In this document: positions 3,115-46,667 of the stretch, piece by piece
Layout: every line of letters starts with the position of its first letter
Position numbering within the stretch: position 1 is the stretch's first letter
Source: Moritella sp. 24
GTDB lineage: Bacteria > Pseudomonadota > Gammaproteobacteria > Enterobacterales > Moritellaceae
Direction of reading: 5' to 3'
Assembly: GCF_018219155.1 (NCBI RefSeq)
Contig: NZ_CP056123.1
Coordinates: forward strand, 4,163,505-4,227,504
Length of the DNA: 64,000 nt
Notes under the pieces: model-generated
Told to the model about the DNA's origin: nothing
Seen by the model: the letters and a program-made list of their open reading frames with translations, nothing else
Database searches by the model: none
Position numbers and translations under genes: made by a program

Positions 3115-3116
3115 AT

Positions 3117-6688: not shown

Positions 6689-6726
6689 TTGTAACTCCGA
6701 AATATAATAAAAATAAAGAAGATAAT

Positions 6727-7642: not shown

Positions 7643-10327
7643 TTATTGCTTTAAAGCTTCACGTAATTGAGGTCGTGATGATGCTTCAAACAATCGTTCT
7701 GGGTTGAAGTGAGGAAACTTCGCAACCAACAATTTAGCAAACTTGATTGTTAGCTCGGTTAAAGGCACAGCACCTTCAACCAACTTATTCCGACCGCCAC
7801 TTCGAACAGCAGCAGCTTTAATCGGATATCCCTGAACCGTCAACCATAGTGCCAATTGAGCAGCATTAATATCTGACTTAAGCATCCCAGCATGTTCATG
7901 CCCGTAAAAACGCAAGAACAAACGAGCCATAAAACTATCCGAAGTTTCATCGGCTTTTAGATTCACAGACTTATTCTTTGATGCTTTAGCCATTGCTAGA
8001 CGGTCTTGCCAAATGATCCAATCATCCATCGTTTTCAAGCAATTATTCTTACGCCAGCGATCAAATCGTAAGCGTGTAAATAACATATCGTCTAAAGAAT
8101 GATGCGGTTTGGACTGCAAACTAATATGGGACTGACCTTTAACATCAATCATTACAGGAGTAATAAGTTCACGTTTTTGGTCGAATTCCATGTTCAATAA
8201 AATATCCCTTTGTTCATTCATCATGTCTTTACGCCCAATGAACATTTCACGAGTAGAGGTCAAATAAGAACCATCAGTCAGCTGACCAAGCACTCGATTT
8301 AAATAAAGGTCCACCATATAAGCATTTTGATTGACCACTCTCCGATCAACCATCACACCGCCTTTAGCTAGAATAGGCGCAAAACCTTCACTTTCCAGCA
8401 CTGTATATTGAGCTCTAGTCTTTGCCCCAATAAGTTGCTTCGCTTGATGTTTCAATTCCAAGATCTCACCACCGTCAGGATCGATGCGATGAAACTGTTC
8501 ACGAAAGCGTTGACAGATAGGACCGTTAAGATCAAACTCATCTAAAGTTGCATTGGTAAGCATTCCATCTGTAGTAAGTGAAACGACGGTTCTATGTTCA
8601 GGAATACTAGCAACCATTTCGCCCATTAGCGCACGAGCAAGTCCCGTGGTATAGGCTGCAAAGAATGGATTAGTTAGTGTTGATGGTGGAAGCTGTTTAG
8701 AGTAACCAGCTTGTATATCAAATGCAGTTTTAGGACGTAGAGATTGTGAAAACTTGCCATAAAGCGTGTTACCGATCTCTTTAAATAAACGTTCCTCGAA
8801 GCCGCCTTTCTCATTCGCTTGTCTGTTCTCCCTCACCCAACCCATAAAGTTTTCAAAGATACGAACATCATCAGCCCAAGGAATCACGAACGCTTGTTTG
8901 ATGGTAATGATCGCCCCTTGGTTAGATGCAACCTCAAGCTCGTGTCCAGTGCAGTGCGTTTCACCAGTAAGTGGGAATATCAAGCCTTTATCTGAGCGTA
9001 CAGCTAAACTAGGGAAACGTGTCGAGGCCGGAAATTCAAAGCGAACCCAAGCCAATGCACATTTATCACCAAATAAATCATTAAGATTTTTGGTCATAAA
9101 CATACGATCGTACGCTAAATTTTTTAACCCTAAGGAAATCGCTGTATAACAGCTAGGGGCATCGAAATCATTCCATGTATCAATATGTGTAGGACCAGAA
9201 ATAAATGATTCATTACGACCACCGTGATAACACTGTGTTGCAAAGTTTTCCAACGTCATTCTTGCCGTTACAGGAACATCTCTAGTTAGCGTCAGTGGTT
9301 CATTACGATCAACAGGCCAAACTTCTTTAGTTACTTTCATAAAACCAAATAACTGACGATAACCTTTACTGTCTGCAAGCCCATTTACAAAGGCTTTTAC
9401 AGCAATTCCACCGATAGTGAATGGGACAGATTTCAGACCGATATCTTTGCAGAATTTAGAGATGCGTTCAAAATGAAGTGATGTAATAATCGCATCGTTC
9501 ATAGCGTAAGCTTCAAAACCAGCTGGATCGCCTTTTCGATATTCATCCATACGTGATATTGAATATGTCGCAGGAATATTAAGCTTCGGTTTATTTACCA
9601 AAATCCCGATATTAAACAAAGACTTACCGCTTGGCGATAACAACATACTGTCGTAAAAGGTAATGTATAAGGTGTGGTAATTGCGGGTTTTATCATAAAC
9701 TTCCAACGGTTCTTTATCGATACGACGAGATAAGACCTCATCAAGATCAAGACCGTAAGGTTCATCAAGACTGGCAACAGTCTTACGTAATCCTTTGACG
9801 TGAGTTTTAAGCTGTTCAAAAGCATTACTGAAGTTAAATAAATCCGCTTTGAGAAAATGAGCTACCAAAATAATATCGGTAGGCCAGCATGTTAATACAT
9901 CTTCAGCCATTGCTTTTTCTAATGCCAAAACCAAGCATTTATCCAAAGCTAATCGACCAGACTTCTTCGTTGATTCAGGGTATAAGATAATGCTTGATGA
10001 CTTATCTCCATGCCGCACCACAAATTGATAACTCAATATACGATTGTAAGTACCACAGGGTGATTCCGTGTATTCGGTATCCAGCGACACAGTAGGACGT
10101 TCAAAGAACTTAGTACCGATTCTACGCTTACTCTTTTTAGCTTTATCTTTACCCCTGCTCTTAGCAGAGGAATTATTTACTTTTTCTTCATATCGGGCAG
10201 TGGGGATCTCAGCTTCGTAATCGACAAGATTTCCTTCACCCCACATAGATAATGAACCATTATCTTCATCACTGAAATCAAGTACTACAGGCGCTTCCTG
10301 TTCCCATACCATTAATTCGTTATTCAT
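7643..10327 (-). CDS. Primer-independent family B DNA polymerase (piPolB) of a pipolin
   Basis: 894 residues from the ATG at 10327, which has GGGGAGC 6-12 bases upstream. Exo I is SLDTEYTE (D83, E85), Exo II is around AHFLKADLF (D162), and Exo III is YAMND (Y274, D278), so a 3'-5' exonuclease is expected. The polymerase domain shows YHGGRNE (from Y367), motif A DAPSCY (D389), motif B KEIGNTLYG (K516, N520, Y523) and motif C TTDG (D587), followed by a KTRAQY segment. Length and motif spacing match pipolin polymerases, which can start DNA synthesis without a primer (family knowledge), rather than phage protein-primed polymerases of about 570 residues. The basic Lys-rich stretch near residues 55-70 may bind DNA. 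Neighbours are an excisionase, an integrase and a tRNA-Leu, the usual pipolin setting. Confidence 0.85.
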   Translation of the reverse strand: MNNELMVWEQEAPVVLDFSDEDNGSLSMWGEGNLVDYEAEIPTARYEEKVNNSSAKSRGKDKAKKSKRRIGTKFFERPTVSLDTEYTESPCGTYNRILSYQFVVRHGDKSSSIILYPESTKKSGRLALDKCLVLALEKAMAEDVLTCWPTDIILVAHFLKADLFNFSNAFEQLKTHVKGLRKTVASLDEPYGLDLDEVLSRRIDKEPLEVYDKTRNYHTLYITFYDSMLLSPSGKSLFNIGILVNKPKLNIPATYSISRMDEYRKGDPAGFEAYAMNDAIITSLHFERISKFCKDIGLKSVPFTIGGIAVKAFVNGLADSKGYRQLFGFMKVTKEVWPVDRNEPLTLTRDVPVTARMTLENFATQCYHGGRNESFISGPTHIDTWNDFDAPSCYTAISLGLKNLAYDRMFMTKNLNDLFGDKCALAWVRFEFPASTRFPSLAVRSDKGLIFPLTGETHCTGHELEVASNQGAIITIKQAFVIPWADDVRIFENFMGWVRENRQANEKGGFEERLFKEIGNTLYGKFSQSLRPKTAFDIQAGYSKQLPPSTLTNPFFAAYTTGLARALMGEMVASIPEHRTVVSLTTDGMLTNATLDEFDLNGPICQRFREQFHRIDPDGGEILELKHQAKQLIGAKTRAQYTVLESEGFAPILAKGGVMVDRRVVNQNAYMVDLYLNRVLGQLTDGSYLTSTREMFIGRKDMMNEQRDILLNMEFDQKRELITPVMIDVKGQSHISLQSKPHHSLDDMLFTRLRFDRWRKNNCLKTMDDWIIWQDRLAMAKASKNKSVNLKADETSDSFMARLFLRFYGHEHAGMLKSDINAAQLALWLTVQGYPIKAAAVRSGGRNKLVEGAVPLTELTIKFAKLLVAKFPHFNPERLFEASSRPQLREALKQ

Positions 10328-10346
10328 TTTTCTGCTCCCCAGATGC

Positions 10347-10369
10347 AAAAAAGACTCCGCAAGGGAGCC
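10347..10369 (-). terminator. Hairpin plus T6 in the leader of the polymerase gene
   Basis: On the minus strand GGCTCC-CTTGC-GGAGTC is followed by six T. It lies 32 bp past the stop of the upstream small gene and ends 20 bp before the polymerase ATG. It looks like a terminator that would limit polymerase expression from upstream promoters. The 5' arm GGCTCCC is also complementary to the polymerase ribosome site GGGAGC. Confidence 0.55.
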
Positions 10370-11165: not shown

Positions 11166-11348
11166 TTATACTTGTGCTAACAATGCTATCTCCCATTTAT
11201 CAATTTCAGTACGTAGAAAGCGTACACTGCGACCAATACGCAACACTTTAGGCAATGACTCAGGGTTACGAGTAACATTGGTTCGCACAGTCGATGGATT
11301 CAAGTTGTACTCCGTAGCAAATTCTTCAATAGTTAATGCATTTTTCAT
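11166..11348 (-). CDS. AlpA-like excisionase / helix-turn-helix DNA-binding protein
   Basis: 60 residues. The ATG at 11348 is preceded by AAGGG. The protein is a single winged-helix unit: LTIEEFATEYNLNPSTVRTNVTR, then VLRIGRSVRFLRTEIDKW, the typical layout of AlpA/MerR-like excisionases that direct element excision and often regulate the neighbouring integrase. It starts 10 bp after the integrase stop, so the two are an int-xis operon, and a strong terminator follows. It is the likely directionality factor for pipolin excision. Confidence 0.75.
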   Translation of the reverse strand: MKNALTIEEFATEYNLNPSTVRTNVTRNPESLPKVLRIGRSVRFLRTEIDKWEIALLAQV

Positions 11349-11358
11349 CTTATCGCCC

Positions 11359-12516
11359 TTAATCAAAAGTAAAGTTAGGTAGCATTACATCAACGGTTTT
11401 CTGTGATGCTTGAGCTAAGTGAATATTTTGGTGGTAGGCATAACGCTCAGTGACACTCACACTCGAATGACCAAGACTCTGTTGTGCCAATCGAATATCG
11501 TTAGTCGCAGCCAACATGGTTGACGCATAGGTTCTACGCAGATCGTGAATGGTGAAATACCCAGCCCATGATCCATCTTCTTTCATCAGTTGTTGAATTC
11601 GATCCATACAAGCACGCGGAGCACCAATATGTTCACCTTCATTTATCATTGACGGAAACACCCAATGGTTAAAAGCCACATCAAGGCATTTACGTAAAAT
11701 ACGTTTCGCAGGTTCAGATAAATAGATCCGTTGCGACCTACCCGACTTAGTTATAGGTAACATGATGGAAGAAAGGTCATCGGAAATCATAGAGCGAGTC
11801 AGACTGATAACATTACCAATGCGCATACCGCTCACCAAACTCAGCATTAACGCACTAGCATGATAAAAATTATTATCACTACAAGCATGGCGACAAAATG
11901 ATTCAGCCTCTTTCGGCGATAACACGCGATCTTTAAAGTTATTCTCAGGTAACTTTTTAATACCTTTACACGGGTTCTTATCGATAATTTCAAGATCTAC
12001 AGCCAACGAAAAAAGCTTGGATAAAAAAGCCTTATAACGATTAACGGTCGAGTTACTAAGTTCTTCAAGACTATTCAAAAAATTCTGAGTATCACGACGA
12101 GTGATATCCGAAACACGCTTATCACCCAATAATTTCATGACCAGCTTAGATCTAGACATAAAAGTTTTATGAGCGCGGTGATGCTTGAGGCTATAAGGCA
12201 CTGCATGTTCATCAAAGAACTGCTGAATCGTTAAGCGAGTACCTTTTTGATAAGCACCAGATTGAACATCAGCAATGAATTGGTAAGCTAGCTGATTAAA
12301 TTCAGCAAATTTCATTTCAGGGTACGTACCGAATGACTCGTAATAACGTTGACCTTTCCAGCTAAAACGAACAAGCCAGCGCATGCTTTTATGAGTAGCA
12401 AGAACTCGAAGACGGGGATTACGATTCCAACGATACTCAACACCTTGTTCACCCTTAGCAGGGCGAATCAAGGCATTGAGTACCTTTTGGGTAAAATCAA
12501 TAGGGGGATTACTCAT
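11359..12516 (-). CDS. Tyrosine recombinase (integrase) of the pipolin
   Basis: 385 residues. The catalytic set is visible: Arg in SGMRIGN (about residue 231), His-x-x-Arg in IHDLRRTYAS (about 324), His in LGHSS, and the nucleophile Tyr in TERYAYH (about 359). The N-terminal part carries an arm-binding segment (RWLVRFSWKGQRYYESFGTYPEM) and a SAM-like core-binding domain. It is similar to phage/island integrases that act at tRNA genes. Co-transcribed with the excisionase just downstream. It most likely catalyses integration and excision of the element at the tRNA-Leu. The start has only a weak ribosome site. Confidence 0.85.
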   Translation of the reverse strand: MSNPPIDFTQKVLNALIRPAKGEQGVEYRWNRNPRLRVLATHKSMRWLVRFSWKGQRYYESFGTYPEMKFAEFNQLAYQFIADVQSGAYQKGTRLTIQQFFDEHAVPYSLKHHRAHKTFMSRSKLVMKLLGDKRVSDITRRDTQNFLNSLEELSNSTVNRYKAFLSKLFSLAVDLEIIDKNPCKGIKKLPENNFKDRVLSPKEAESFCRHACSDNNFYHASALMLSLVSGMRIGNVISLTRSMISDDLSSIMLPITKSGRSQRIYLSEPAKRILRKCLDVAFNHWVFPSMINEGEHIGAPRACMDRIQQLMKEDGSWAGYFTIHDLRRTYASTMLAATNDIRLAQQSLGHSSVSVTERYAYHQNIHLAQASQKTVDVMLPNFTFD

Positions 12517-12703: not shown

Positions 12704-13870
12704 ATGCCAAGAAAAAAGCCTGTGATGATGAAAAAGAAAATTCAGCTATTTATTAGAAGAAAAGAAGAGTTAACAACACATTCAAAACATTTAATCATTG
12801 CCACTTTTAAACGACTTTTTGGGTTGAGCCCTGATGATGCAGCATTATCACTAATACACGGCTTTAAGAAAGCCAATATCGAGAGTACATGGCCAAAACG
12901 TTCTGCCCACTCAACGTATAAGACAAAAACACCATTTCAGACACTGAAAAGTTTAGATAATAAATATAATGTAAATCTCACACTAATAACGAATACAGTC
13001 ATCGAACAGAATAACGCCAATGATGATAGTTTTCAGAAAATCGATCTTATTGTTACAGTTAATATTGATGAGTTCCCACCATGGTATGAACAGAATAAAT
13101 TAATTATAAAAAGGTTAGGCGGTTTGATATCTGAAGAGAAAAAATTTGATAATCACAGCTATAAATTATTCCTCAATGCAGTTAAAGATATATCACCTAA
13201 TACCGAACAGCATATTATTGAACCAAACTGTAAATGGTATAGAAGCCACCTTACAAAATATAAATGTATACGACCGAAGAAAACACCAATAAGTGCAGAG
13301 TTAATCATAATAAATGTTGATGATAATGAAGATGATGACGTAGCATCTAATCCAGCAATATGTCTACTATTAAGACCTTCCGAGGCGTACGGATATATAC
13401 CTGTAAAATTCTATAATCCACTGAAAGAAAAAAATATATATGATTATCTATTCGACCACACAAGCAATTTCAGTATTACAGTTCAAAAGGAAGAGAATAG
13501 ACTAACTATTACGCTTAAGTTATCAAACGAAGCTCGAAGTACTTTGACGTATAAAACAGTCATAGAGCAAGTATTCAAACCTATAGTGAACAACCCATTT
13601 ACGGGAAAGCCTGTTTTTAATAAATTAGAACTTTGGGATTCATCACTACCTAATATTACTTATTCATTAGTAGAAAAAAATCTACTGAGTAACTGTATCT
13701 CAGATTTAACATCAACAAACGGGCTTAGTGACAAACTCAGCGTCGAACATACATTACAACGTTTTCATCAGCACCTATCCCTAAAAGGACTCTATGAACA
13801 AACTGTCCCGAAAATGTTTATAGATAAAAAGGGAACAAAAATAAAGCCGACTAAGTTCATCATGAATTGA
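12704..13870 (+). CDS. Pipolin protein of unknown function, divergent from the integrase
   Basis: 388 residues from the ATG at 12704; a TTG 12 bases upstream is possible, and the ribosome site is weak. The N-terminus is strongly basic (MPRKKPVMMKKKIQLFIRRK), suggesting nucleic-acid binding. The rest is rich in Asn/Lys with an acidic patch DDNEDDD near residue 205 and no recognised motif, signal or membrane segment. It is transcribed away from the integrase, and its AT-rich codon use is typical of the accessory region. No function is proposed. Confidence 0.65.
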   Translation: MPRKKPVMMKKKIQLFIRRKEELTTHSKHLIIATFKRLFGLSPDDAALSLIHGFKKANIESTWPKRSAHSTYKTKTPFQTLKSLDNKYNVNLTLITNTVIEQNNANDDSFQKIDLIVTVNIDEFPPWYEQNKLIIKRLGGLISEEKKFDNHSYKLFLNAVKDISPNTEQHIIEPNCKWYRSHLTKYKCIRPKKTPISAELIIINVDDNEDDDVASNPAICLLLRPSEAYGYIPVKFYNPLKEKNIYDYLFDHTSNFSITVQKEENRLTITLKLSNEARSTLTYKTVIEQVFKPIVNNPFTGKPVFNKLELWDSSLPNITYSLVEKNLLSNCISDLTSTNGLSDKLSVEHTLQRFHQHLSLKGLYEQTVPKMFIDKKGTKIKPTKFIMN

Positions 13871-13945
13871 TTATCTTAACGAATAATAAAACATTAGCGT
13901 CATGCTGATACTCACACTGAGCTGGACATGTGAGTGTCATTGTTA

Positions 13946-13973
13946 TATCTACCCCTACGTGTAAATCACACAC
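13946..13973 (+). repeat. 28-bp direct repeat, copy 1
   Basis: TATCTACCCCTACG, 4 nt, then AATCACACAC. The same two blocks with the same spacing occur at 21210-21237; only the 4-nt spacer differs. A looser relative lies near 7551-7581. The region 13871-14135 otherwise holds no gene. Confidence 0.55.
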
Positions 13974-14135
13974 CCACTCAACTCACTGAACTATAATAAA
14001 ATTACTGCATAAACTAAAACGAAAAATCAAACGTACTCATTTAACTAGCAAATGAAATCAACAATAAATTAGTTAAAATTTTAATAGTCCTAACGTTTCA
14101 TCTAAGGGCTATACAATCCATAGGGAAAATAAAAA

Positions 14136-14390
14136 ATGAGTACATTTAATTTATTTGTTGAAGCGTTTAAGGCAAAGGTAATACTTAAAGCGAACCAAGG
14201 TTCTAAGGCTCGGGTCAAGGAATTCGATGCCATCGTAAATGACATTGAAATGGTACATGGTGCTATACCTGATATCGGTAGAATTCGTGCGCACTTCATC
14301 GTGTGTATATCTAGCCGACCTAATTGGGGCTGCCGTAAGGTTATTGAAGAGTTTGATAGCACAGTTGCTAAAATCAGAGGTGATGGTTGA
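14136..14390 (+). CDS. Small hypothetical protein
   Basis: 84 residues, ATG at 14136 with a weak AGGGAA ribosome site. Mostly helical with alternating charges, one Cys in FIVCISSRPNWGC and another soon after; no motif recognised. Overlapping frames exist on the other strand, but this one has the better start and an organised composition. It lies alone between the 28-bp repeat and a large inverted repeat. Confidence 0.45.
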   Translation: MSTFNLFVEAFKAKVILKANQGSKARVKEFDAIVNDIEMVHGAIPDIGRIRAHFIVCISSRPNWGCRKVIEEFDSTVAKIRGDG

Positions 14391-14457
14391 TAGCGGGTAT
14401 TGGGTGTGATTTATTGGTATGTCTGTATTAGTGGGTAATTTATTCACTAATATATGG

Positions 14458-14509
14458 ATTAATGTAAAGGGAGGGGGATTAACGAAGTTGAGACTCCCTT
14501 TACATTAAT
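14458..14509. repeat. 16-bp perfect inverted repeat
   Basis: ATTAATGTAAAGGGAG (14458-14473) / CTCCCTTTACATTAAT (14494-14509) with a 20-nt loop. There is no T run, so it is not a classic terminator. It lies just before a second hairpin and could be a protein-binding palindrome or a structured end of a small transcript. Confidence 0.6.
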
Positions 14510-14531
14510 AGAATCACCTAGAAAAAAAAAT

Positions 14532-14569
14532 AAAAGTCATTTCCTGAATTCAACTGGGAAATGACTTTT
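14532..14569. terminator. Bidirectional hairpin terminator
   Basis: 13-bp perfect stem AAAAGTCATTTCC (14532-14544) / GGAAATGACTTTT (14557-14569), flanked by A-rich sequence on the left and a T run on the right, so it can end transcripts from both sides: the plus-strand small gene and the minus-strand micro-genes. Confidence 0.75.
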
Positions 14570-14606
14570 TCATTACGTCATAATATCCGAACGGATGCTT
14601 GTTTAA

Positions 14607-14711
14607 TTAAGCACGTTTAGATTTATAGTTACTTGTAACCTTGGTTTCATTCGCGGCAAATAAGAACCCTGAAATCAATCCGCACCCTAAGTAAATCAAT
14701 GGTAATGGCAT
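14607..14711 (-). CDS. Tiny single-span membrane peptide (34 residues)
   Basis: ATG at 14711 with GGAG 7 bases upstream, overlapping the end of the preceding micro-gene. The sequence begins MPLPLIYLGCGLISGFLFAA, one transmembrane span, and ends in a basic tail (NYKSKRA). It resembles the 27-residue peptide encoded just upstream (both MPL + hydrophobic span + Glu/Lys). Size and layout are like small membrane stress proteins or type I toxins, but the function is unknown. Confidence 0.55.
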   Translation of the reverse strand: MPLPLIYLGCGLISGFLFAANETKVTSNYKSKRA

Positions 14712-14715
14712 GGTA

Positions 14716-14799
14716 TTACTCCTTGTTTAATTCTTTATAGATGGCATAGCCGATGATGAACCCAATACCAAATATTGGATTGGTGAAAACGAGCGGCAT
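14716..14799 (-). CDS. Tiny single-span membrane peptide (27 residues)
   Basis: ATG at 14799 preceded by AAGGAAAT. It starts MPLVFTNPIFGIGFIIGYAI and ends YKELNKE: one membrane span and a short charged tail. Its last codons (AAGGAGTAA) contain the ribosome site of the next micro-gene, so the two are translationally coupled. Function unknown. Confidence 0.55.
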   Translation of the reverse strand: MPLVFTNPIFGIGFIIGYAIYKELNKE

Positions 14800-14830
14800 A
14801 ATATTTCCTTATTTGTTTCAGATATAAAAA

Positions 14831-14858
14831 AGCGCCATATCATTGCTGATATGGCGCT
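14831..14858 (-). terminator. Terminator after the zinc-ribbon micro-genes
   Basis: 12-bp perfect stem AGCGCCATATCA / TGATATGGCGCT with a 4-nt loop, followed on the minus strand by TTTTT. It separates the two zinc-ribbon genes from the two membrane-peptide genes. Confidence 0.8.
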
Positions 14859-14892
14859 GCGTTTAGTTCTGTTATTTATTCAATCTAATGGG

Positions 14893-15054
14893 CTAACAAC
14901 CACCCTTACAGACTCCGCCAGATGCTTTATGTGAATTACATACCCACTTACCGCATTTATTACATGATGTGCCACCAGTGACTTCTGTTTTCTTACCGCA
15001 CTTATTGCAAGTCCATAGTTTTAGGTTACTGCTCAACTTCTTAAAAAATGACAT
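14893..15054 (-). CDS. Small zinc-ribbon protein (53 residues)
   Basis: Start ATG at 15054, AGGAACG upstream. It carries CNKCGKK near residue 16 and CNKCGKW near residue 32, then C-x5-H and a Cys/Gly-rich tail, typical of a treble-clef or AN1-like zinc-binding module. It lies 16 bp after a second micro zinc-ribbon gene, in the same operon, divergent from the WYL regulator. It may bind nucleic acid or protein; no family was recognised with certainty. Confidence 0.65.
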   Translation of the reverse strand: MSFFKKLSSNLKLWTCNKCGKKTEVTGGTSCNKCGKWVCNSHKASGGVCKGGC

Positions 15055-15070
15055 GTTAGCTCGTTCCTGA

Positions 15071-15172
15071 TTAGTGAGAATGACCGCATACTTGGCAGCT
15101 ACCATCATCGTAAGCACGTTGACCACAAGCTGGACATGTCGTTACTGCTGTTAAGATTTTTTTGATTGTCAT
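15071..15172 (-). CDS. Micro zinc-ribbon protein (33 residues)
   Basis: Start ATG at 15172. It reads MTIKKILTAVTTCPACGQRA then a DGSCQVCGHSH end: two C-x2-C knuckles making one complete zinc ribbon. It is the first gene of the micro-gene operon, whose promoter region contains one of the two WYL-type palindromes (15247-15263). Function unknown; probable DNA- or protein-binding. Confidence 0.6.
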   Translation of the reverse strand: MTIKKILTAVTTCPACGQRAYDDGSCQVCGHSH

Positions 15173-15246
15173 GATATTTCCCTATTAGTTTCTATTAGTG
15201 ATGGCTACTCAGATTAAGTAGCTTGAGATTAGTATATAGTTGGCTA

Positions 15247-15263
15247 CTGACAGGTTGTGTCAG
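15247..15263 (+). promoter_or_regulatory. Probable WYL-regulator operator 1
   Basis: CTGACAGGTTGTGTCAG, with CTGACA/TGTCAG arms. It lies 74 bp upstream of the micro-gene operon start. It matches operator 2 in inverted orientation in 16 of 17 bases. Confidence 0.65.
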
Positions 15264-15369
15264 TGTCTGAATAAATAATTGATTATTGTTATAAGCCTTA
15301 CGGTATCTACTCAATGAAAGCTATAGCAATACCGCTAACCTGATGGATTTGAACTACAAATAATAACGA

Positions 15370-15386
15370 CTGACTCAACCTGTCAG
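15370..15386 (-). promoter_or_regulatory. Probable WYL-regulator operator 2
   Basis: CTGACTCAACCTGTCAG on the plus strand; its reverse complement is CTGACAGGTTGAGTCAG. It lies 22 bp before the WYL gene start, a position suited to autorepression. Confidence 0.65.
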
Positions 15387-15408
15387 TACGGTGGTTTAAT
15401 CTAGTTAA

Positions 15409-16290
15409 ATGAAAATTAAAAATGAAAAATTAGCCAAGCGATTAGGTACTATCCTTGCCCGATTAAATGCGGGAGAACGGTTATGCCAGAAAGACTTGGA
15501 AGTGGAATTTAACGTCCATGAAAGGACGATATGGCGTGATTTCGAAAGGCTCTCCTATCTGCCTTTGATTCGTGAAGATGGTTGTTACTTTCTTGATATG
15601 AGCAGTGTTAGACAGCAATCATCAAATAACATGAATAAGTTAATACAGAATGCTGGATTGGAATCATTAATCCCGATTAAGCTCAACATGAACAACTGGC
15701 AGACCAATGATATGCCGACGTTCTTATTCAAGAATGTACGTATTGAAGATGTATCTAATTTCACTGATTTATTTGATGTATTAACTAACGCTATCCATTC
15801 ACAGCGACAGGTTTCATTTACATATAAAGATAAATTACTAGAACAGGTTCAGCCCTACCGCTTAGTGAATGACAGAGGTATCTGGTATCTAGCCGCAGTC
15901 TGTCAGAACCACCTACACTCATTCAGAATTGCCTATATTTCACAATTTAAGCTCAGTGACGATAAATATAAACCGCAAGCTAATATCCAAGATGAAATCA
16001 TTAGGCAGGGAATGCAGTGGTTAGATATCGACAAGTCAGATGTGTTAATACAAGTTGATGCTCATGTGGCCTCTCGCTTTCTTGATAGTGATTTACTCCC
16101 TAATATTCAGGTGTTAAAAGAAATGGATGATGGTTCATTACTGATTAGCTCTCAGGTAACACGATTACACGATGTGCTTCCTATTTTAAAGGCTTGGATG
16201 CCTCATGTTGAAGTGTTATCACCAGTGAGTCTAAAGCATGAACTTATCCGCGATTTGTACGCGTCATTAGAGCGCACCAAGATGATGTAA
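15409..16290 (+). CDS. WYL-domain transcriptional regulator
   Basis: 293 residues. An N-terminal winged helix-turn-helix (residues 8-60, LCQKDLEVEFNVHERTIWRDFERL) is followed by a WYL domain (about 130-185, including QPYRLV-NDRGIWYLAAV and SFRIAYI) and a C-terminal WCX-like dimerisation part. The layout and length are those of BrxR/CapW-type regulators that repress phage-defence genes and respond to nucleic-acid ligands (family knowledge). Two nearly identical palindromes in the divergent intergenic region indicate that it controls itself and the micro-gene operon. Confidence 0.8.
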   Translation: MKIKNEKLAKRLGTILARLNAGERLCQKDLEVEFNVHERTIWRDFERLSYLPLIREDGCYFLDMSSVRQQSSNNMNKLIQNAGLESLIPIKLNMNNWQTNDMPTFLFKNVRIEDVSNFTDLFDVLTNAIHSQRQVSFTYKDKLLEQVQPYRLVNDRGIWYLAAVCQNHLHSFRIAYISQFKLSDDKYKPQANIQDEIIRQGMQWLDIDKSDVLIQVDAHVASRFLDSDLLPNIQVLKEMDDGSLLISSQVTRLHDVLPILKAWMPHVEVLSPVSLKHELIRDLYASLERTKMM

Positions 16291-16945
16291 TGCTGTTAGT
16301 TTGAGGTAGGTGTTAATCCGATACAAATCACAGCTAAACTTCATTTTCTTATTTTGCATACTGTTGGTTTTGAACGTGAGTACAGGGTAAGAGTCACTTT
16401 AAATTGACATAGTTAGTTAAAATCAAAGTTGCTGATGCGATCTAACCAGATACTTAAAATTCATAAACCTGTAAACCGATACGGGTTATCGAAAGATTTA
16501 AAGTAGCTAAAAAATAGCGTCGACTGTCTAACATTAAATTAATAAGTGCTTGCACATCTAATATAAAAGGATAATAAGAGAGTAATTCATCAGTAATTTA
16601 CAGACTTAGATTTCTATCTTTTATTGCCAGTACTACATTAATTTGAGTCACCTACCCCATTGCCTATCGTGCAATGGGGTGATTATTTTCGATGGTATTT
16701 TTACTTCATTAAGCATCAATCATTACCAACTAAAACAGCCAATTCCAGTCAGTGGATTTAGTATCCTTTGTTAAAAATCCATTGAATGGAAAGGCAATAC
16801 CCATCACACCTTACTACGTAAGCTGCGATGGGCAGTGCCAATTTAAGTACACTAAGTTGTTACTTCTCCTCCTGTCCATAACGCGACTTTTTCCTGACCT
16901 TTACGCTGTCCAGTTAAAACACTATTACAGCTTATTTTGTATTGG
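16291..16945. other. Long intergenic region with two hairpins, no convincing gene
   Basis: 655 bp. A stem ACCCCATTG (16654-16662) / CAATGGGGT (16672-16680) may terminate the WYL transcript or a small RNA. A second, two-part hairpin lies at 16800-16832. The 65-codon plus-strand frame at 16752 has no ribosome site and an unusual composition, and I do not accept it. The stretch could hide a small RNA. Confidence 0.45.
16800..16832. repeat. Two-part inverted repeat
   Basis: CCCATC / GATGGG outer arms (16800-16805, 16827-16832) and CTTAC / GTAAG inner arms (16810-16814, 16818-16822), separated by 4-nt bulges, with a TAC loop. Confidence 0.45.
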
Positions 16946-17368
16946 TTAAAACGTACTGAGTTTAACTTCATCAAATGCACCAAAACCTTGATACTCAATA
17001 AAGTTCATCTCCCATGTCGGATAGAAATCCATAACTTCATGTAAAGAACGCATCGGTAATGGGTACACCATGCCAGTTCCATTACGCATATCGAAATCAA
17101 TTTCTTTCGCCAATTCAGGATAATGATAACCTTGGTAACTGAACGAAGTGATGTAATCAAATTGCCACAGACCGTTATGATGGGTAATGCTGATTTCAAC
17201 AGGATGAAAACCACCATCTTCGCTGTTGTAAGCACTATCTCTAAAGTTAAATACAATAGTGTTAGTGCCTGTTGGTATGTCTTGTTCTTGGGTAACCTTG
17301 GCAAGTATATTCATCAAGTCTGGTGTTACAGGCACAAGGAAGCTATCCGAATCAAAGTTCAGTTTCAT
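16946..17368 (-). CDS. DUF2787 family protein
   Basis: 140 residues. It matches the DUF2787 pattern: NTIVFNFRDSAYNSEDGGFHPVEI, then WQFDYITSFSYQG-YPEL-KEIDFD, and a C-terminal MNFIEYQ block. These proteins are frequent on genomic islands of Vibrio and Shewanella and have no known function. It lies downstream of two hypothetical genes in the same orientation (gap about 80 bp), and the three probably form an operon with the integrase-side genes. Confidence 0.75.
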   Translation of the reverse strand: MKLNFDSDSFLVPVTPDLMNILAKVTQEQDIPTGTNTIVFNFRDSAYNSEDGGFHPVEISITHHNGLWQFDYITSFSYQGYHYPELAKEIDFDMRNGTGMVYPLPMRSLHEVMDFYPTWEMNFIEYQGFGAFDEVKLSTF

Positions 17369-17447
17369 AATGAGTTCCGTTAGTAAGTTTGTGGGATTAG
17401 GTTTAGTGAGGTTCTTAGGTATGTAAGTGGTGAATGGCCAGCGTGGA

Positions 17448-18059
17448 TTAAGTTAATGCTAACAATTTGGTTTTCTTCTCCTCGTAATCATCAGCTAATA
17501 CATGCAGAAATACGCTAGTATCAGATTGGACAATTAAACCAATATCAGGCGAACGTAGCACACCAGCAAGAAACCCTGCATTGTTTGCGTTAGATTTTTT
17601 TAATGTAGGTTTAAGTACGGTACTTTTAAATGGTTTATCAACTTGTTCATCCAGGATGGCAAACAACTTAGACAAGTTAATCCATTCTTTAGAATGTAAC
17701 CCACCCCCTTCATTGCCACTAAGTCGGATATACAACTCACCTTCTTCATCATGCTCTGCCACATCAAAGAAAACGTGATTAGTTGTTTTAGGACTTAGCT
17801 TCTTACCTTTCCCTGATAATACAATATTGCTGAAATGGTCATGTTTCTCAGATTCAGTTTGTTTATCATTAGCAGGCTTATCTTCAACAGCTTTATCTGT
17901 TGGTGAATCAGCAGGTACATTACTTACTTGTTCATCGGTTAATTCAGCAGATGTGTTATCGACATTAGTATCACCAACTGCAACAGTGGTAGAAGTAACA
18001 TTGTTATCATCAGCTTTTACGTCTGTTGTTTTATTGGTGCTGTTAGTTTTACGGCTCAT
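17448..18059 (-). CDS. Hypothetical protein with acidic disordered N-terminus
   Basis: 203 residues. Residues 1-90 are Thr/Asp/Val/Asn-rich and look disordered (TNKTTDVKADDNN...). Residues about 95-203 form a globular part (NHVFFDVAEHDEEGELYIRLSG). An AAGG-like ribosome site precedes the ATG at 18059. It sits between the DUF2787 gene and an acidic hypothetical gene. No family recognised. Confidence 0.55.
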   Translation of the reverse strand: MSRKTNSTNKTTDVKADDNNVTSTTVAVGDTNVDNTSAELTDEQVSNVPADSPTDKAVEDKPANDKQTESEKHDHFSNIVLSGKGKKLSPKTTNHVFFDVAEHDEEGELYIRLSGNEGGGLHSKEWINLSKLFAILDEQVDKPFKSTVLKPTLKKSNANNAGFLAGVLRSPDIGLIVQSDTSVFLHVLADDYEEKKTKLLALT

Positions 18060-18117: not shown

Positions 18118-18495
18118 TTAAAGCATCTTGCTTAATGTCGTTGCTGCAGTTGTCTTAGATGTTAATGGGGCTACTACATAACAGCCGCCGTCTGTATTGG
18201 CTAACAGTCCTAAAATGTATGGACAAGTATCATCATTCAACAATATGACAAACTCTGGACCAACATCTATCATGCGTTGGATAAAGTATTGAATATCTTC
18301 ATCTGCTTCAGTCAACGAGTTATCAACATCGCTTTCTTCTAACAGAATTAGAAAGGTATCGTATTCAGACCAGAACTCAGCAGTGGTATCCAAGCAACCA
18401 TCGAATGGACTGATTAGCTCAGAATGTAATGCGGTTTTAACTTGTTCAGGCAGGGTTAGTTCATTAACAAGGTTGAAGTTTTTAATCACTTTCAT
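18118..18495 (-). CDS. Small acidic hypothetical protein
   Basis: 125 residues, strongly acidic in the middle (EESDVDNSLTEADEDIQYF). No signal or membrane segment. First gene of the hypothetical-DUF2787 set, downstream of the second integrase. A DNA-mimic role would suit its charge, but there is no other support. Confidence 0.55.
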   Translation of the reverse strand: MKVIKNFNLVNELTLPEQVKTALHSELISPFDGCLDTTAEFWSEYDTFLILLEESDVDNSLTEADEDIQYFIQRMIDVGPEFVILLNDDTCPYILGLLANTDGGCYVVAPLTSKTTAATTLSKML

Positions 18496-18580: not shown

Positions 18581-19798
18581 TTACAGATTGACCATACTCG
18601 ATATTATCGATGCCGTTTCACGTTGTTTACCCTCGCTTAATTTGGCATAACGTAAGGTACTAGATATGTCCTTGTGATTTAATAATTTCTGAACAGCGCT
18701 AATATCAACACCGTTAGAGATCAGGTTACTCGCGACTGAATGTCGTGCCGTATGCAATAACACTTCATCGGGATTATCTATCTTTGCTGTTTGTTTAATA
18801 ATATCGAAAGAGTAACGAGGCGCACCGATTGGCTTGCCTTTTTTGTGTGGCGCTGGGAATACGTAATTATTGCCCGATATTTTTGGGGTAGATTGCAGGA
18901 TCTCTATCATGAGGTCAGACAGATAAATGATGTGATAAGTACCGTTCTTGGTGCGAGGGATAGTTAGGGTGCGCTTTTCGTAATTAATATCCGTATGCAG
19001 TCTGAAACGCAATTCACCTTCACGACAACCAATCAAATGTAGCAATGCTATGAAGTTACCAATACTTTTCTGCGGATAGGCTCTAGAGGCTTTGATTATG
19101 CGTTTAGTTTCATCAATATCACAGTATCGAGTACGAGCATTATTCTCGGGCAGTAACGACACCCTATCGGCCACATTGATTATATCTAACATGTTATGCG
19201 CCAGCTTACCCATCGTTTTTAATAAAGCTAATATACGGTTACAAGTTGCTGGTGCGTAATACTCACCTTTGTATTTAGTCTCGCTTAAACCAAGATGTAG
19301 CTTCATTACATGGCTAACCGTTAGCTCGTTATATTTAATATTTGCAATAGCATTACAGTGTTTACGGAATCGTTTTTCATCAATACCCCACGTTTTCTTT
19401 CTACGCTTTGCCAGTGGTAAGTACGTATCGTAGAAGAATGATTTAACGGTTGGGTACTCAGTGGCATTGTCACGTTCAGCTTTAGGGTCAGTACCATCAG
19501 CGATCATACCTTTATACTTACGAGCGACCTTTCTAGCTTGGTTGATGTCGATATCAGGAAAGCGCCCGATGGTGATACTACATTTACGTCCGTGGAATTT
19601 ATAACGTAATAAGAAACGTTTATTACCCGTTTTACCGGATAGACATTTTAAGCCGATGATTTCAGTATCGGATACTTCGAGTTCTGTTGATGATGAATTG
19701 CTTGGATTCGCGGGAAGGGATTTTAGATTGGCATTGGTGAATTTGAATTTTTTGGTCGTGATGGGACTGGGGTTATTGGATGTGTTGTTGCTGGTCAT
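18581..19798 (-). CDS. P4-type tyrosine integrase (second integrase)
   Basis: 405 residues. The N-terminal arm-binding DUF4102-like domain is followed by the catalytic domain with Arg in LIGCREGELR (about residue 257), His-x-x-Arg in HTARHSVAS (about 351), His in LLNHKD and nucleophile Tyr in TLRYAKL (about 382). P4-type integrases insert islands at tRNA genes. It is encoded nearer the tRNA-Leu than the first integrase. It either serves the pipolin or belongs to a nested element bounded by the 28-bp repeats at 13946 and 21210. Confidence 0.85.
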   Translation of the reverse strand: MTSNNTSNNPSPITTKKFKFTNANLKSLPANPSNSSSTELEVSDTEIIGLKCLSGKTGNKRFLLRYKFHGRKCSITIGRFPDIDINQARKVARKYKGMIADGTDPKAERDNATEYPTVKSFFYDTYLPLAKRRKKTWGIDEKRFRKHCNAIANIKYNELTVSHVMKLHLGLSETKYKGEYYAPATCNRILALLKTMGKLAHNMLDIINVADRVSLLPENNARTRYCDIDETKRIIKASRAYPQKSIGNFIALLHLIGCREGELRFRLHTDINYEKRTLTIPRTKNGTYHIIYLSDLMIEILQSTPKISGNNYVFPAPHKKGKPIGAPRYSFDIIKQTAKIDNPDEVLLHTARHSVASNLISNGVDISAVQKLLNHKDISSTLRYAKLSEGKQRETASIISSMVNL

Positions 19799-21637: not shown

Positions 21638-21659
21638 AGCCCCAACTTTCGTTGAGGCT
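21638..21659 (-). terminator. Terminator of tRNA-Leu
   Basis: 9-bp stem AGCCTCAAC / GTTGGGGCT (one G-U pair) with a GAAA tetraloop on the minus strand, 14 bp past the CCA, followed by TTTGTTGT. Confidence 0.75.
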
Positions 21660-21673
21660 CTATTACTTAAATA

Positions 21674-21758
21674 TGGTGCCCGAGGGCGGACTTGAACCGC
21701 CACTCCTTTCGGAAGAGGATTTTGAATCCACCGCGTCTACCGATTTCACCACTCGGGC
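21674..21758 (-). tRNA. tRNA-Leu (anticodon CAA)
   Basis: 85 nt. On the minus strand, acceptor GCCCGAG pairs with CTCGGGC, followed by encoded ACCA. The anticodon loop is TTCAAAA and the T-arm is GGCGG TTCAAGT CCGCC. A long variable arm (TTCCGAAAGGAG) marks a class II tRNA. The anticodon stem GTGGA/TCCTC has a T-T mismatch at pair 28-42. The 3' end points to the pipolin. tRNA-Leu is the known pipolin target in enterobacteria. Confidence 0.9.
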
Positions 21759-22120: not shown

Positions 22121-23788
22121 TTATAGGTGGAACTTATCTAATCGATGTTTATTTAAAGGACTCTCGTCTCCAATTTCCTTCAAAGCCTGCCTAGTATTTA
22201 TCATAAGTTCAGAACAACTACGCCCCAGCAATAAACAGACTCTAATATAGTCGGTAAGATCATCCCCCTTAAAGTCTTTAAACATTGTTTTTAGCTGATC
22301 TTTACTGAGCTGACCAAGACGTTCTGCATCTTCTAAGTTATAAGAGTTTTTTCCTTTCCATCGTTCAAGTATATCCAAAGGGGAGTCATCTACCTTAATC
22401 TCATCATACTTAGCTTGTAATCGGTCTCTAAACTCTCCGCCTTCAACACCAAAAGGATGAAAATCCATATTTTTCATATTAAAAATTTCACACCGGTCTG
22501 TCATTTGGTCAATATAGAAATCCGTTAATTCATTAGCTTTACTCTCAAAACCAAGATCCCGAATTAACTTAATACCTTTGCTGTATTGAGATGTTGATAG
22601 ATCTTTAGCTGATACCCTCAAACCAATCTCCATCGCTTCGATAACCTGCTCTACATCATTATCAAATGAATGATGAAAAATATTCCAAGCCTTTGAGTAC
22701 TCTTTACTCCTTTCCAAAGCCTCTAGCTCAACTTGCCTTGCATTACACAACGCTAGCCACTTTTCTCTATAAATAAACCCCTGCTCGATACTATCCGCAA
22801 TAACTATGTCCAACTCATCTGTTAGCATATAGCCATATTCACTCAACCTGGCATTCCATTCCTTTGCCTTATCTTCATCACCACCCTTTATAGTTTTCCT
22901 TAAACCACTCTGCTTCAAAAAATCAAAACTAGGTATAGAATCATCACCACCACGACAGTAATAACACCAACTAAAAACAACTACAGAATGAACAGCCTGA
23001 TATTTAAGGTCACAATGATGGTCAGCTATAAGACTCAATACTTCATGTGTGTGACGCTCAATTTTCTTAAGCACTCGAATGTTTTTAATATCCAATTTAA
23101 GACAACAATCTCGAATATGGGGATACTGATCTTGCATATCGACAGCTAAATCAAAACATTCTGCAGCGCTAGGCTCGAAATGAAGTTGTTTATCAATTAT
23201 CTTCTCTTTATATGTAAAGTAATCATCCAAATCTTTAGCGTCTTCATTAAGTAAAATAACGACTTTACAACCCTTTTGCTCTTTTAAAAACGAAACTAGA
23301 CCTAAAAAATCTTTAACACTCAGGCCTGCACTATGTCTTTCAATATCATCAAAGCAAATAAGCGTCTCGTTTAAAGACAAGAAAGATAAGGAACTAAAAA
23401 CATCCTCTAAACCAGAACCTAACCCTTTTACAGCAATATCTACCAATGGTTTAGCGATACTTTTGACTACACCTGTAGATTTACGACCCACCTGTTTAAC
23501 TAAGCTCTGATAATTCTGCTTAAAGGTATTAATATTGGGTTTCTGACCAATAATATTGGTATCTACAGTGTTGTCAAAAATCCCTCGTTTCAAGTCATCC
23601 AGTGAGTTAATACCAAAAAGTGAAACATAACAATACGAATTCAGAGCTATTTCATCTTTAAACTCAGATATATACTTATCCCAGCTATAAGTTTTACCAA
23701 TACCCCAGCGCCCTTTAATAGCAAGGACCTCAGGTTCACAACTCTTTAGAAAAATTTCAATCTGTTCCTTAACCAATTCAACCGACAT
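22121..23788 (-). CDS. P-loop NTPase, KAP-like
   Basis: 555 residues from the ATG at 23788 (a GTG 9 bases upstream is possible). Walker A is GRWGIGKT (about residues 26-33) and the Walker B-like segment is ETLICFDDIERHS (about 147-159); a conserved helical C-terminal half follows. This recalls KAP/STAND-type NTPases that occur in islands and some phage-defence systems. A GSGLEDVFSSLSF segment between the two motifs might be membrane-associated. It stands alone, without an effector gene next to it, within the decayed element right of the tRNA. Confidence 0.6.
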   Translation of the reverse strand: MSVELVKEQIEIFLKSCEPEVLAIKGRWGIGKTYSWDKYISEFKDEIALNSYCYVSLFGINSLDDLKRGIFDNTVDTNIIGQKPNINTFKQNYQSLVKQVGRKSTGVVKSIAKPLVDIAVKGLGSGLEDVFSSLSFLSLNETLICFDDIERHSAGLSVKDFLGLVSFLKEQKGCKVVILLNEDAKDLDDYFTYKEKIIDKQLHFEPSAAECFDLAVDMQDQYPHIRDCCLKLDIKNIRVLKKIERHTHEVLSLIADHHCDLKYQAVHSVVVFSWCYYCRGGDDSIPSFDFLKQSGLRKTIKGGDEDKAKEWNARLSEYGYMLTDELDIVIADSIEQGFIYREKWLALCNARQVELEALERSKEYSKAWNIFHHSFDNDVEQVIEAMEIGLRVSAKDLSTSQYSKGIKLIRDLGFESKANELTDFYIDQMTDRCEIFNMKNMDFHPFGVEGGEFRDRLQAKYDEIKVDDSPLDILERWKGKNSYNLEDAERLGQLSKDQLKTMFKDFKGDDLTDYIRVCLLLGRSCSELMINTRQALKEIGDESPLNKHRLDKFHL

Positions 23789-23849
23789 GGCAAACACCCG
23801 AAAAAATAATTATATCAATAGGTTAACATACATTTAAACATGTAATAAA

Positions 23850-24226
23850 TATCAATCATTCCAGCATTACTAATTCGATAACTCACCATATCAACCCGAA
23901 TATAAAATTCATCCACATACAGCAACTTATCAACGCCTAATTTCGTACTAACTCATCCAACGACAATCCCAGCATTTCACCTTTAGCCTTAGCTCTACGG
24001 GCTTTCTACTTCAATAACGTAATCATCTTCTCGGTATCACCAGCAACCAGTTCAAAGTTCGCCAGTAGCAAGTTACGAGAAGATAGGTATAGAATATCGT
24101 TATAAACCATTTGTTTTACTGCCCTTCAGCTACTAGCTCATTAACTAATGTAGATTCAAGGCCATAATGACGGGCAGCAGCAGAACGACTAGCGAATTCA
24201 ATATCGTTTATAGTTAATTTAGACAT
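23850..24226 (-). pseudogene. Decayed copy of the 6082-6688 element gene
   Basis: Starts at the ATG at 24226 (MSKLTINDIEFASRSAAARH) and stops after 36 codons. Downstream DNA remains clearly similar to 6090-6380 but has stops and frameshifts. Relative to the left copy, an internal segment corresponding to about 6388-6590 is deleted. The preserved start suggests what the intact family protein looked like. Confidence 0.75.
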
Positions 24227-41292: not shown

Positions 41293-41303
41293 CAAAGTTC
41301 TCC

Positions 41304-42524: not shown

Positions 42525-42890
42525 CAAAACTCTCCTTGTATTAAAAATTTCATCCGTGTTGAATTTCTCAGTAAGTCGTCATACGACATATATATTGATT
42601 ATCAATCAATCGGTTCGTTAGTATGATGGAATTTTTCATGCTCATGTTCTTTATTTTTGCGATCTAGTTCACAACGAGACGACTTGTTACATAAATGTAA
42701 GGAATTAGGTTGAACTTATTGTAATTTACTTCTAAACGCTAGCATTTAGCTGCATCAATAGAAATACCACCAACGTGATAAACCAACAAACTGATAACAT
42801 CTGAGTAATTAGTGATAAAAGAAAAATATAAAATAAAAATGCCGCGCTAAAAGCACGGCATTTTTATTTAAAGAGGCATTGATGAGGATA
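42525..42890. other. Intergenic between porin cassettes 1 and 2
   Basis: 366 bp with the terminator at 42835-42865 and presumably the cassette 1 promoter; no gene. Confidence 0.4.
42835..42865 (-). terminator. Terminator of the second porin cassette
   Basis: AAAAATGCCG / CGGCATTTTT, 10-bp stem around an 11-nt loop, T run on both strands; 26 bp past the gene. Confidence 0.8.
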
Positions 42891-43304: not shown

Positions 43305-43315
43305 TTTTACTTTCC

Positions 43316-45286: not shown

Positions 45287-45296
45287 AATTCTCTCC

Positions 45297-46616: not shown

Positions 46617-46667
46617 AAAATTTCTCTCCTTAGAAATTTCGTGTAGCAAGCAAATTGTCGTTACTTA

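What the first reader, a model, noticed from the sequence alone, without database searches (positions are those of the whole stretch)
14607..16290. WYL regulator with twin operators beside a cluster of four micro-genes
Two near-identical palindromes (15247-15263, 15370-15386) sit before the divergent WYL gene and an operon of two micro zinc ribbons, followed by two membrane peptides. WYL regulators of this build often control phage-defence genes, so this may be an undescribed defence or stress module.
Basis: partly seen in the sequence, partly recalled or inferred. Interest (0 to 1): 0.65.

Follow-up and report, generated by a model that had tools for sequence, protein, structure and literature searches.

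The report
WYL switch in a pipolin element
A mobile DNA element that carries its own DNA polymerase also carries a small regulatory switch with two matching control sites that probably turns on a set of tiny proteins when single-stranded DNA appears in the cell; the layout of its control sites suggests that it works like known DNA-damage activators.

Summary
A wHTH-WYL-WCX gene (15409-16290) faces a micro-gene cluster across two near-identical palindromes. The micro-genes recur across seven loci of the genus (window included) with few losses; dN/dS of those measured is about 0.03-0.2, save one misaligned value.

Three things were missed. (1) The cluster lies in a ~22.7-kb element at tRNA-Leu, bounded by direct repeats, with the gene set of E. 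coli pipolins (elements encoding a B-family DNA polymerase), the polymerase block being inverted. (2) The palindrome is not local: GACWCAACCTGTC precedes WYL homologues only 26-49% identical to this one. (3) A TAnnnT -10 hexamer sits exactly 12 nt after the operator in 13 of 21 sites (0 of 2000 shuffles), without a recognisable -35. This is the spacing published for mycobacterial PafBC-type promoters.

Best reading: an ssDNA/DNA-damage-responsive WYL switch controls itself and the micro-genes, probably as a DriD/PafBC-type activator. A CapW/BrxR-type repressor is the main rival. "Undescribed defence module" is only partly supported: relatives of the regulator precede candidate defence operons, but the micro-genes match no known defence family.

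The parts
15409..16290 (+). WYL regulator, 293 aa (wHTH-WYL-WCX)
   Evidence: Pfam WYL and WCX above cutoff; fold nearest DriD by Foldseek; 7 copies in 4 of 11 genomes of the genus at 86-100% identity
15247..15263 (-). operator 1, core GACACAACCTGTC reading toward the micro-genes
   Evidence: core present in 7 of 7 copies (read)
15231..15236 (-). predicted -10 hexamer TATACT, 12 nt after operator 1
   Evidence: same place is TATACT in 2 of 7 copies and CATAAT in 5 of 7
15370..15386 (+). operator 2, core GACTCAACCTGTC reading toward wyl
   Evidence: exact core in 3 of 7 copies, TGCC variant in 4 of 7 (read)
15397..15402 (+). predicted -10 hexamer TAATCT, 12 nt after operator 2; ATG follows 6 nt later, so wyl mRNA is probably leaderless (inference)
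15071..15172 (-). ZnR1, 33-aa zinc-ribbon micro-protein
   Evidence: dN/dS 0.030; Pfam zinc-ribbon models below cutoff
14893..15054 (-). ZnR2, 53-aa Cys-rich micro-protein
   Evidence: dN/dS 0.078; zf-BED just above its cutoff
14831..14858 (-). intrinsic-terminator-like hairpin between ZnR2 and the membrane peptides
   Evidence: a hairpin at this place listed in 5 of 7 copies, one of them with changed stem bases
14716..14799 (-). MP27, 27-aa membrane peptide
   Evidence: core dN/dS 0.048; no Pfam, PADLOC or PHROG match
14607..14711 (-). MP34, 34-aa membrane peptide; its SD-like sequence overlaps the end of MP27
   Evidence: dN/dS 0.089
14136..14390 (+). 84-aa ORF facing the micro-genes, found in 4 of the 6 other loci, in the WYL-less G005 pipolin, and as a fragment (residues 1-37) at a second place in G008
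7643..10348 (-). B-family DNA polymerase, 901 aa, homologue of the E. coli pipolin polymerase
   Evidence: 37-38% to L098 and L099, 37-39% to L072 and L073; PHROG DNA polymerase E 9e-12; Pfam DNA_pol_B_2 below cutoff
11166..11366 (-). small HTH, excisionase-like by position
   Evidence: Pfam HTH_17 just above cutoff; homologue beside the first integrase of E. coli pipolins
11359..12516 (-). tyrosine recombinase 1
   Evidence: Pfam Phage_integrase
16946..17368 (-). DUF2787 protein
   Evidence: Pfam E 4e-30
17448..18059 (-). protein B (phrog_28971)
   Evidence: homologues in pipolins
18118..18495 (-). protein A, 125 aa
   Evidence: homologues in pipolins
18581..19798 (-). tyrosine recombinase 2
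   Evidence: Pfam Phage_integrase and Arm-DNA-bind_3; 48% to the E. coli pipolin integrase
21644..21727 (.). right attachment repeat overlapping tRNA-Leu(CAA) 21674-21758; left repeat lies 889-977 bases left of the window

Best explanation
It is a local, self-regulating WYL switch in a pipolin. A WYL dimer binds two near-identical operators (GACWCAACCTGTC), each placed 12 nt upstream of the -10 hexamer of one of two divergent promoters that lack a recognisable -35. When ssDNA (DNA damage, phage or plasmid replication, or the element's own polymerase) binds the WYL domains, the dimer recruits RNA polymerase, in DriD/PafBC fashion, to the wyl promoter and to the operon of a secreted protein (lost here), two zinc micro-proteins and perhaps two membrane peptides. 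Shown by calls: genes, operators, geometry, conservation, locality of sites, pipolin context. Inferred: binding, ssDNA sensing, and activation rather than repression. The most likely purpose of the cargo is a stress- or infection-induced, envelope-directed protective cassette (weak inference).
For: GAC-N7-GTC is the commonest of 704 triplet-gap palindromes upstream of 29 WYL loci: 17 of 29; shuffles of that motif mean 0.6, max 3. TAnnnT at exactly +12 in 13 of 21 sites, nAnnnT in 19 of 21; 0 of 2000 shuffles reach 13; 11 of 15 loci have at least one such site. Best -35 match over spacers 15-19 is 2-4 of 6, mean 2.57 against 2.95 in shuffles. PafBC-type promoters are printed as tTGTCRgtg - 8 nt - TannnT, i.e. 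TGTC-N12-TAnnnT (passage of PMC5656591). DriD sites lie at a fixed distance from -10 in promoters with 1-2 of 6 matches at -35 and serve a divergent operon (PMC12340889, section 4 parts 1-2). Foldseek ranks DriD (E 2e-12) and PafBC (9e-11) above CapW/BrxR (2e-7); the family profile matches PafBC best, E 1.5e-11, DriD 4e-8, BrxR of E. fergusonii 2.5e-4. In the genus the operator-N12-nAnnnT pattern occurs 11 times, only in the 4 of 11 genomes with this WYL clade, 10 times at WYL loci. PafBC (passages of PMC11804915), DriD (abstract) and CapW/BrxR (passage of PMC13373217) are reported to respond to ssDNA.
Against: The gammaproteobacterial WYL families with tested function that I read of (CapW, BrxR) are repressors. 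Fixed spacing could be inherited rather than required. 8 of 21 sites lack a full TAnnnT and 12 of 29 loci lack the exact palindrome. In 4 of 7 copies operator 2 has TGCC in the promoter-proximal half, and in 5 of 7 copies the operator-1 hexamer is CATAAT. The outer half-site looks like a -35 (mean 4.38 of 6) but 21 bp from the -10. One weak sigma-70-like match (9 of 12; shuffles average 3.9 such matches) lies just upstream of operator 1 on the minus strand, 15309-15282, where a bound dimer would block. By VIA-align, PafBC (Z 11.4) ties with BrxR and CapW (10.4-11.7), and full-length DriD rows run from 11.8 to 14.1. [quoted passage not shown] No binding, ligand or expression data exist; the model's pTM is 0.48.
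Confidence: 0.47

Rival explanations
1. CapW/BrxR-type repressor: the WYL dimer on the two operators blocks both divergent promoters and is released by ssDNA, de-repressing itself and the micro-gene cassette.
For: CapW and BrxR repress and bind palindromes in their promoters (passages); ssDNA releases CapW/BrxR (passage); relatives of this WYL precede candidate defence operons; a weak promoter-like match lies upstream of operator 1; VIA-align Z of BrxR, CapW and PafBC are about tied.
Against: The described repressor sites sit at varied places (over -10 in CapW, over a predicted -35 in BrxR of Acinetobacter, after a predicted -10 in BrxR of E. fergusonii), while here the distance to -10 is fixed in distant homologues and there is no recognisable -35 at 15-19 bp. 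The pEFER BrxR site is a different sequence.
Confidence: 0.39
2. The WYL protein is the master switch of the pipolin and controls its integrases and polymerase (excision and replication).
For: It is found in pipolins of Moritella, E. coli and other genera, with conserved neighbours.
Against: No close operator copy (20-base probe, up to 3 mismatches) lies before the polymerase, excisionase or integrase genes in the window, and the stricter pattern occurs elsewhere in the genome only at the second WYL locus; weaker sites would be missed. 3 of 7 copies have no polymerase gene nearby, and the G005 pipolin shows no WYL gene.
Confidence: 0.07
3. The micro-genes are unrelated passengers, and the operators serve only wyl autoregulation.
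For: One E. coli pipolin type keeps operator 1 with no annotated gene between it and the polymerase gene (L098); a terminator-like hairpin precedes the membrane peptides.
Against: Operator 1 with an nAnnnT hexamer at +12 points into the micro-gene cluster at 7 of 7 loci, and other short ORFs occupy that place in L069, L070, L071 and L081.
Confidence: 0.07

Closest known systems
Pipolins of E. coli (piPolB-encoding integrative elements)
   Same: Shared gene set: integrase, small HTH, PolB, WYL, DUF2787, B, A, second integrase, ending at tRNA-Leu; terminal direct repeats
   Different: The integrase-HTH-polymerase block is inverted relative to E. coli, and micro-genes lie between it and wyl; polymerase 37-38% identical to the two E. 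coli ones; priming activity untested
DriD (Caulobacter) and PafBC (mycobacteria) WYL activators
   Same: Site at fixed distance from -10, weak or absent -35, divergent operon (DriD), TGTC-N12-TAnnnT (PafBC); best Foldseek matches
   Different: Only 15-21% identity in structure alignments; here the wyl promoter also has a site; PafBC is a heterodimer
CapW / BrxR WYL repressors
   Same: wHTH-WYL-WCX of about 290 aa, palindromic site upstream of own gene, relatives near candidate defence operons
   Different: Operator sequence differs from BrxR of pEFER; weaker Foldseek match than DriD

Membership tests
Pipolin | piPolB gene | tested here: met
   Homologue of the E. coli pipolin polymerases (37-38% over about 790 aa), DTE- and TTD-like motifs in both (motif meaning recalled); primer-independence itself not testable
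Pipolin | Terminal direct repeats, one overlapping a tRNA gene | tested here: met
   89% repeat over 84 query bases, window 21644-21727 and G000:C1:4162528-4162616
Pipolin | Tyrosine recombinase(s) with excisionase-like gene | tested here: met
   feature as described in PMC7385651 section 10
DriD/PafBC-type WYL activator | wHTH-WYL-WCX architecture | tested here: met
   WYL and WCX above cutoff, HTH_11 below cutoff; model
DriD/PafBC-type WYL activator | Site at a fixed distance from -10 and poor -35 | tested here: met
   exceptions: 8 of 21 sites without TAnnnT
DriD/PafBC-type WYL activator | ssDNA binding and transcription activation | not testable with these tools
   needs EMSA, in vitro transcription, reporters
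CapW/BrxR repressor | Repression of own and adjacent promoter, relieved by ssDNA | not testable with these tools
   needs reporters
CapW/BrxR repressor | Adjacent operon is a phage-defence system | tested here: inconclusive
   no PADLOC hit for the micro-genes; candidate-defence hits beside relatives
CapW/BrxR repressor | Closest fold among WYL proteins | tested here: inconclusive
   CapW/BrxR below DriD/PafBC in Foldseek but about tied with PafBC in VIA-align

The most novel reading that the evidence does not exclude
A large gammaproteobacterial family of mobile-element and defence-linked WYL proteins are not repressors but PafBC/DriD-type activators with a shared promoter code (GACWCAACCTGTC-N12-TAnnnT, no -35). 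Pipolins use it as an SOS-independent ssDNA alarm that switches on envelope-directed micro-protein cassettes, possibly sensing their own polymerase's ssDNA.
Probability: 0.35. Interest if true: 0.75.

Novelty: new variant of a known kind. Interest (0 to 1): 0.55.

Why it matters
If true, one short DNA pattern predicts which operons are wired to ssDNA sensing by this WYL clade, in E. coli among others, without RNA-seq. It would also show that the promoter layout known from mycobacterial DNA-damage control exists in gammaproteobacterial mobile elements, and would give pipolins a testable induction signal and a set of conserved micro-proteins to study.

Tried and rejected
Master regulator of pipolin mobility: rejected as the main reading. 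Local coincidence of palindromes: rejected. Non-coding micro-ORFs: rejected. Known RNA in 13000-17500: none at gathering score. Phage or plasmid origin of the module: no megablast match in plasmids; signal-peptide protein not found in plasmids nor in viral contigs; ZnR2 not found in viral contigs; WYL in 1 phage record at E<=1e-10, Moraxella phage Mcat5, 32%, and in 28 plasmid records below 60% identity. Signal-peptide protein elsewhere: 8 of 394 genomes of the order; the three weaker ones (G310, G032, G373) show none of the other query proteins nearby. Fold of that protein: pLDDT 50.5, not searched. Same operator as BrxR of pEFER: no. Single-sequence PDB search of WYL and PolB: no hits at E<=0.01.

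Mistakes mended: the 27-aa membrane peptide was given in a wrong frame ('MP23'); the right frame was then counted and scanned, with no match. Full-length MP27 dN/dS 0.727 is set aside as mispaired; its core was then chosen by motif, which biases it low.

Rows dropped before counts: the 29 loci hold one of seven Moritella copies and one of the near-identical L077/L079/L080; the E. coli loci L098 and L099 are left out as near-copies of L073 and L072; L064 and L065 were left out because their strand was not set; further weak WYL hits were not fetched or not used. Of 17 loci with GAC-N7-GTC, L076 and L088 fell out of the site set because they matched the oriented core at fewer than 10 of 13, leaving 21 sites in 15 loci. 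The sites were oriented by the core consensus. Shuffles keep base content only, not dinucleotides; the largest count of any of the 704 combinations in a shuffle was 16 (AT-rich ones score high by chance; TTT with gap 5 had 16 in the real set).

A paper on pipolins as defence platforms (NAR 2024, title recalled) is not held, so I do not know what it says; supplementary tables of the BrxR paper could not be read. I found no paper that names WYL in pipolins of bacteria or this operator, in the searches (one search listed one paper with both words, on Thaumarchaeota, not opened).
Full report
What is there. The window maps to G000:C1:4163505-4227504; the one locus found in named genome contigs, 92% identical in WYL, is from Moritella sp. 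DT_65, the same contig size as G008, which is placed in the window's genus. The described features are all present at the stated coordinates. The two palindromes are the only matches to a 20-base probe with up to 3 mismatches in 64 kb, against none in 100 shuffles. The WYL ORF has Pfam WYL and WCX domains above cutoff and an HTH below cutoff. The micro-genes are a 33-aa zinc ribbon, a 53-aa Cys-rich protein and two membrane peptides of 27 and 34 aa. The 27-aa gene was missing from my first ORF list because that was cut at 30 aa.

The micro-genes are real. The genus holds seven close WYL copies (86-100%, the window included) in 4 of 11 genomes; a fifth genome has only a 29% relative. Beside these seven, ZnR1, MP27 and MP34 are found at 7, ZnR2 at 6 and an 84-95 aa signal-peptide gene at 5; the window copy and G010a lack the latter. 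dN/dS is 0.030, 0.078 and 0.089 for ZnR1, ZnR2 and MP34, 0.111 for WYL, and 0.048, 0.051 and 0.209 for cores of MP27, MP34 and the signal-peptide protein. Full-length MP27 gave 0.727 from copies that differ by a codon at both ends. A terminator-like hairpin lies between ZnR2 and MP27, so the membrane peptides may be a separate unit.

The element is a pipolin. The window carries a 901-aa B-family DNA polymerase, two tyrosine recombinases, a small HTH gene, DUF2787 and proteins A and B, ending at tRNA-Leu. E. coli strains HCM-25C-3 and SCU-104 hold the same set beside tRNA-Leu, with 37-38% polymerase, 48% integrase-2 and 35-39% WYL identity; their integrase-HTH-polymerase block is inverted relative to the window. 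A published survey describes E. coli pipolins as piPolB plus direct repeats at Leu-tRNA with XerC/IntS recombinases and an excisionase-like gene (PMC7385651, abstract and sections 9 and 10 read). Here an 84-base stretch at 21644-21727 recurs at 89% in G000:C1:4162528-4162616, so the element is about 22.7 kb. In the genus, 4 of 7 WYL copies lie within 3-7 kb of a polymerase gene (window, G010a, and a second polymerase type in G010b and G004); 3 of 7 have none in the stretches read. The pipolin of G005 shows no WYL. Of 23 more distant WYL loci read (stretches of up to 20 kb, some cut by contig ends), 4 have both genes (L072, L073, L077/L078, L079).

The operator is a family trait. Upstream of 29 WYL loci, all 64 triplets with gaps 2-12 were counted as inverted pairs: GAC-N7-GTC was commonest, in 17 of 29 loci, against a shuffle mean of 0.6 and maximum of 3 for that motif; over all 704 combinations the shuffle maximum was 16, from the many tried. 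The 21 oriented sites in 15 loci give GACWCAACCTGTC; GAC and GTC were required, C is kept at 20 of 21 at each of the two positions before TGTC, and the free T at 21 of 21. In the 8 of 21 sites where the outer half departs from GACA, the promoter-proximal TGTC is whole. Twin operators facing apart occur in the window, L069, L071, L072, L073 and L081; in L070 the second site is imperfect.

The geometry is the new observation. TAnnnT begins exactly 12 nt after GTC in 13 of 21 sites and nAnnnT in 19 of 21; no other offset exceeds 3 for TAnnnT; 0 of 2000 shuffles reach 13. By locus, 11 of 15 have at least one such site. The best -35 match at spacers 15-19 is 2-4 of 6, mean 2.57, below the shuffled 2.95 (1.8% of 500 shuffles as low), and 1 of 21 sites has an extended -10. 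The outer half-site itself looks like a -35 (mean 4.38 of 6) but at 21 bp, which I take to be too far for sigma-70 (established knowledge, not tested). In the window both hexamers fit (15231-15236 and 15397-15402) and the wyl ATG follows its -10 by 6 nt, so its mRNA is probably leaderless (inference). The mycobacterial motif is printed as tTGTCRgtg - 8 nt - TannnT (PMC5656591, passage), the same TGTC-to-hexamer distance. For DriD, cryo-EM work reports sites at one distance from -10, -35 elements with 1-2 of 6 matches, and activation of a divergent operon but not of driD itself (PMC12340889, abstract, section 4 parts 1-2 of 3 and figure legends read).

Specificity. In 11 genomes of the genus, GACNCNNCCTGTC-N12-NANNNT occurs 11 times, all in the 4 genomes with this WYL clade, 10 at WYL loci; the eleventh is inside a coding ORF; the reversed control pattern gives 0. 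So the direct regulon looks local, plus possible cross-talk between the two loci of one genome. Weaker sites would be missed by this pattern.

Counter-evidence. In 4 of 7 copies operator 2 reads GACACCACCTGCC, breaking the half that PafBC-like use would need; in 5 of 7 copies the operator-1 hexamer is CATAAT, not TAnnnT. Eight of 21 sites lack the full TAnnnT and 12 of 29 loci lack the exact palindrome. A sigma-70 scan of 14500-15500 finds one weak match, on the minus strand at 15309-15282, just upstream of operator 1 (fewer than the 3.9 expected by chance); if real, operator 1 would be a block downstream of it. CapW and BrxR repress (passages of PMC9122588, PMC9122601, PMC9122589) and are relieved by ssDNA (PMC13373217 passage). 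The model (mean pLDDT 80.9, pTM 0.48) matches DriD and PafBC more strongly than CapW/BrxR in Foldseek, and the profile does too, but in VIA-align PafBC is about tied with BrxR and CapW. Fold likeness does not fix the sign of control. Hence activation is favoured, not shown. On rechecking I moved the two main readings by 0.01 each because of the promoter-like match and the VIA-align tie.

Neighbours of relatives. In 8 loci chosen from 21, 9 of 10 downstream proteins hit PADLOC models: PDC-M09, PDC-M40, LeoA-like, HerA; of 10 proteins scanned with Pfam, 3 (from L082 and L095) have Dynamin_N, 1 has a HerA-type domain and 6 have nothing. So this WYL clade is linked to candidate, partly membrane-acting, defence operons. 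In E. coli the PolB-WYL stretch has matches in 330 of 5426 genomes; a wyl upstream region like SCU-104's is in 179 and one like HCM-25C-3's in 8.

Verdict. The module is a new variant of a known kind: a WYL-controlled cargo switch of pipolins, with a promoter layout that points to activation. The micro-proteins match no family in PADLOC; in Pfam the two zinc proteins give mostly sub-cutoff zinc-finger matches and the membrane peptides and signal-peptide protein none. An envelope-directed protective role is my guess from a signal peptide and two membrane peptides.

Noticed in passing
40879-46649: Three similar gene pairs in tandem, each a porin-like protein (by eye) plus a 137-138-aa secreted-looking protein.
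   Followed up: no
22121-23797: KAP-type NTPase with a strong PADLOC PDC-S49 candidate-defence match, just right of the tRNA-Leu that borders the pipolin.
   Followed up: no
709-5648: Two large adenine methyltransferase-like genes, one like BREX PglX (E 2e-58, below cutoff) and one like the Alw26I methylase family (below cutoff), inside the pipolin.
   Followed up: partly
L015 4359-7106; L016 from 18457 into L019: A second, 1048-1058-aa polymerase type, about 29% (37% in its best part) identical to the window's, beside the same WYL module; in G010 the two WYL copies lie 15.6 kb apart.
   Followed up: partly
6422-6712 and 24137-24211: Small protein with an I-TevI-type DNA-binding domain in the pipolin; a fragment like it also lies right of the tRNA.
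   Followed up: no
L017 10137-10646; L018 11283-11777: A second form of protein B lies in the micro-gene cluster of two polymerase-less elements.
   Followed up: no
L082, L095, L088, L094, L087, L075: WYL relatives precede dynamin-like or PDC-M09/M40 operons; the best site in L082 and L088 is an imperfect form of the operator (read).
   Followed up: partly
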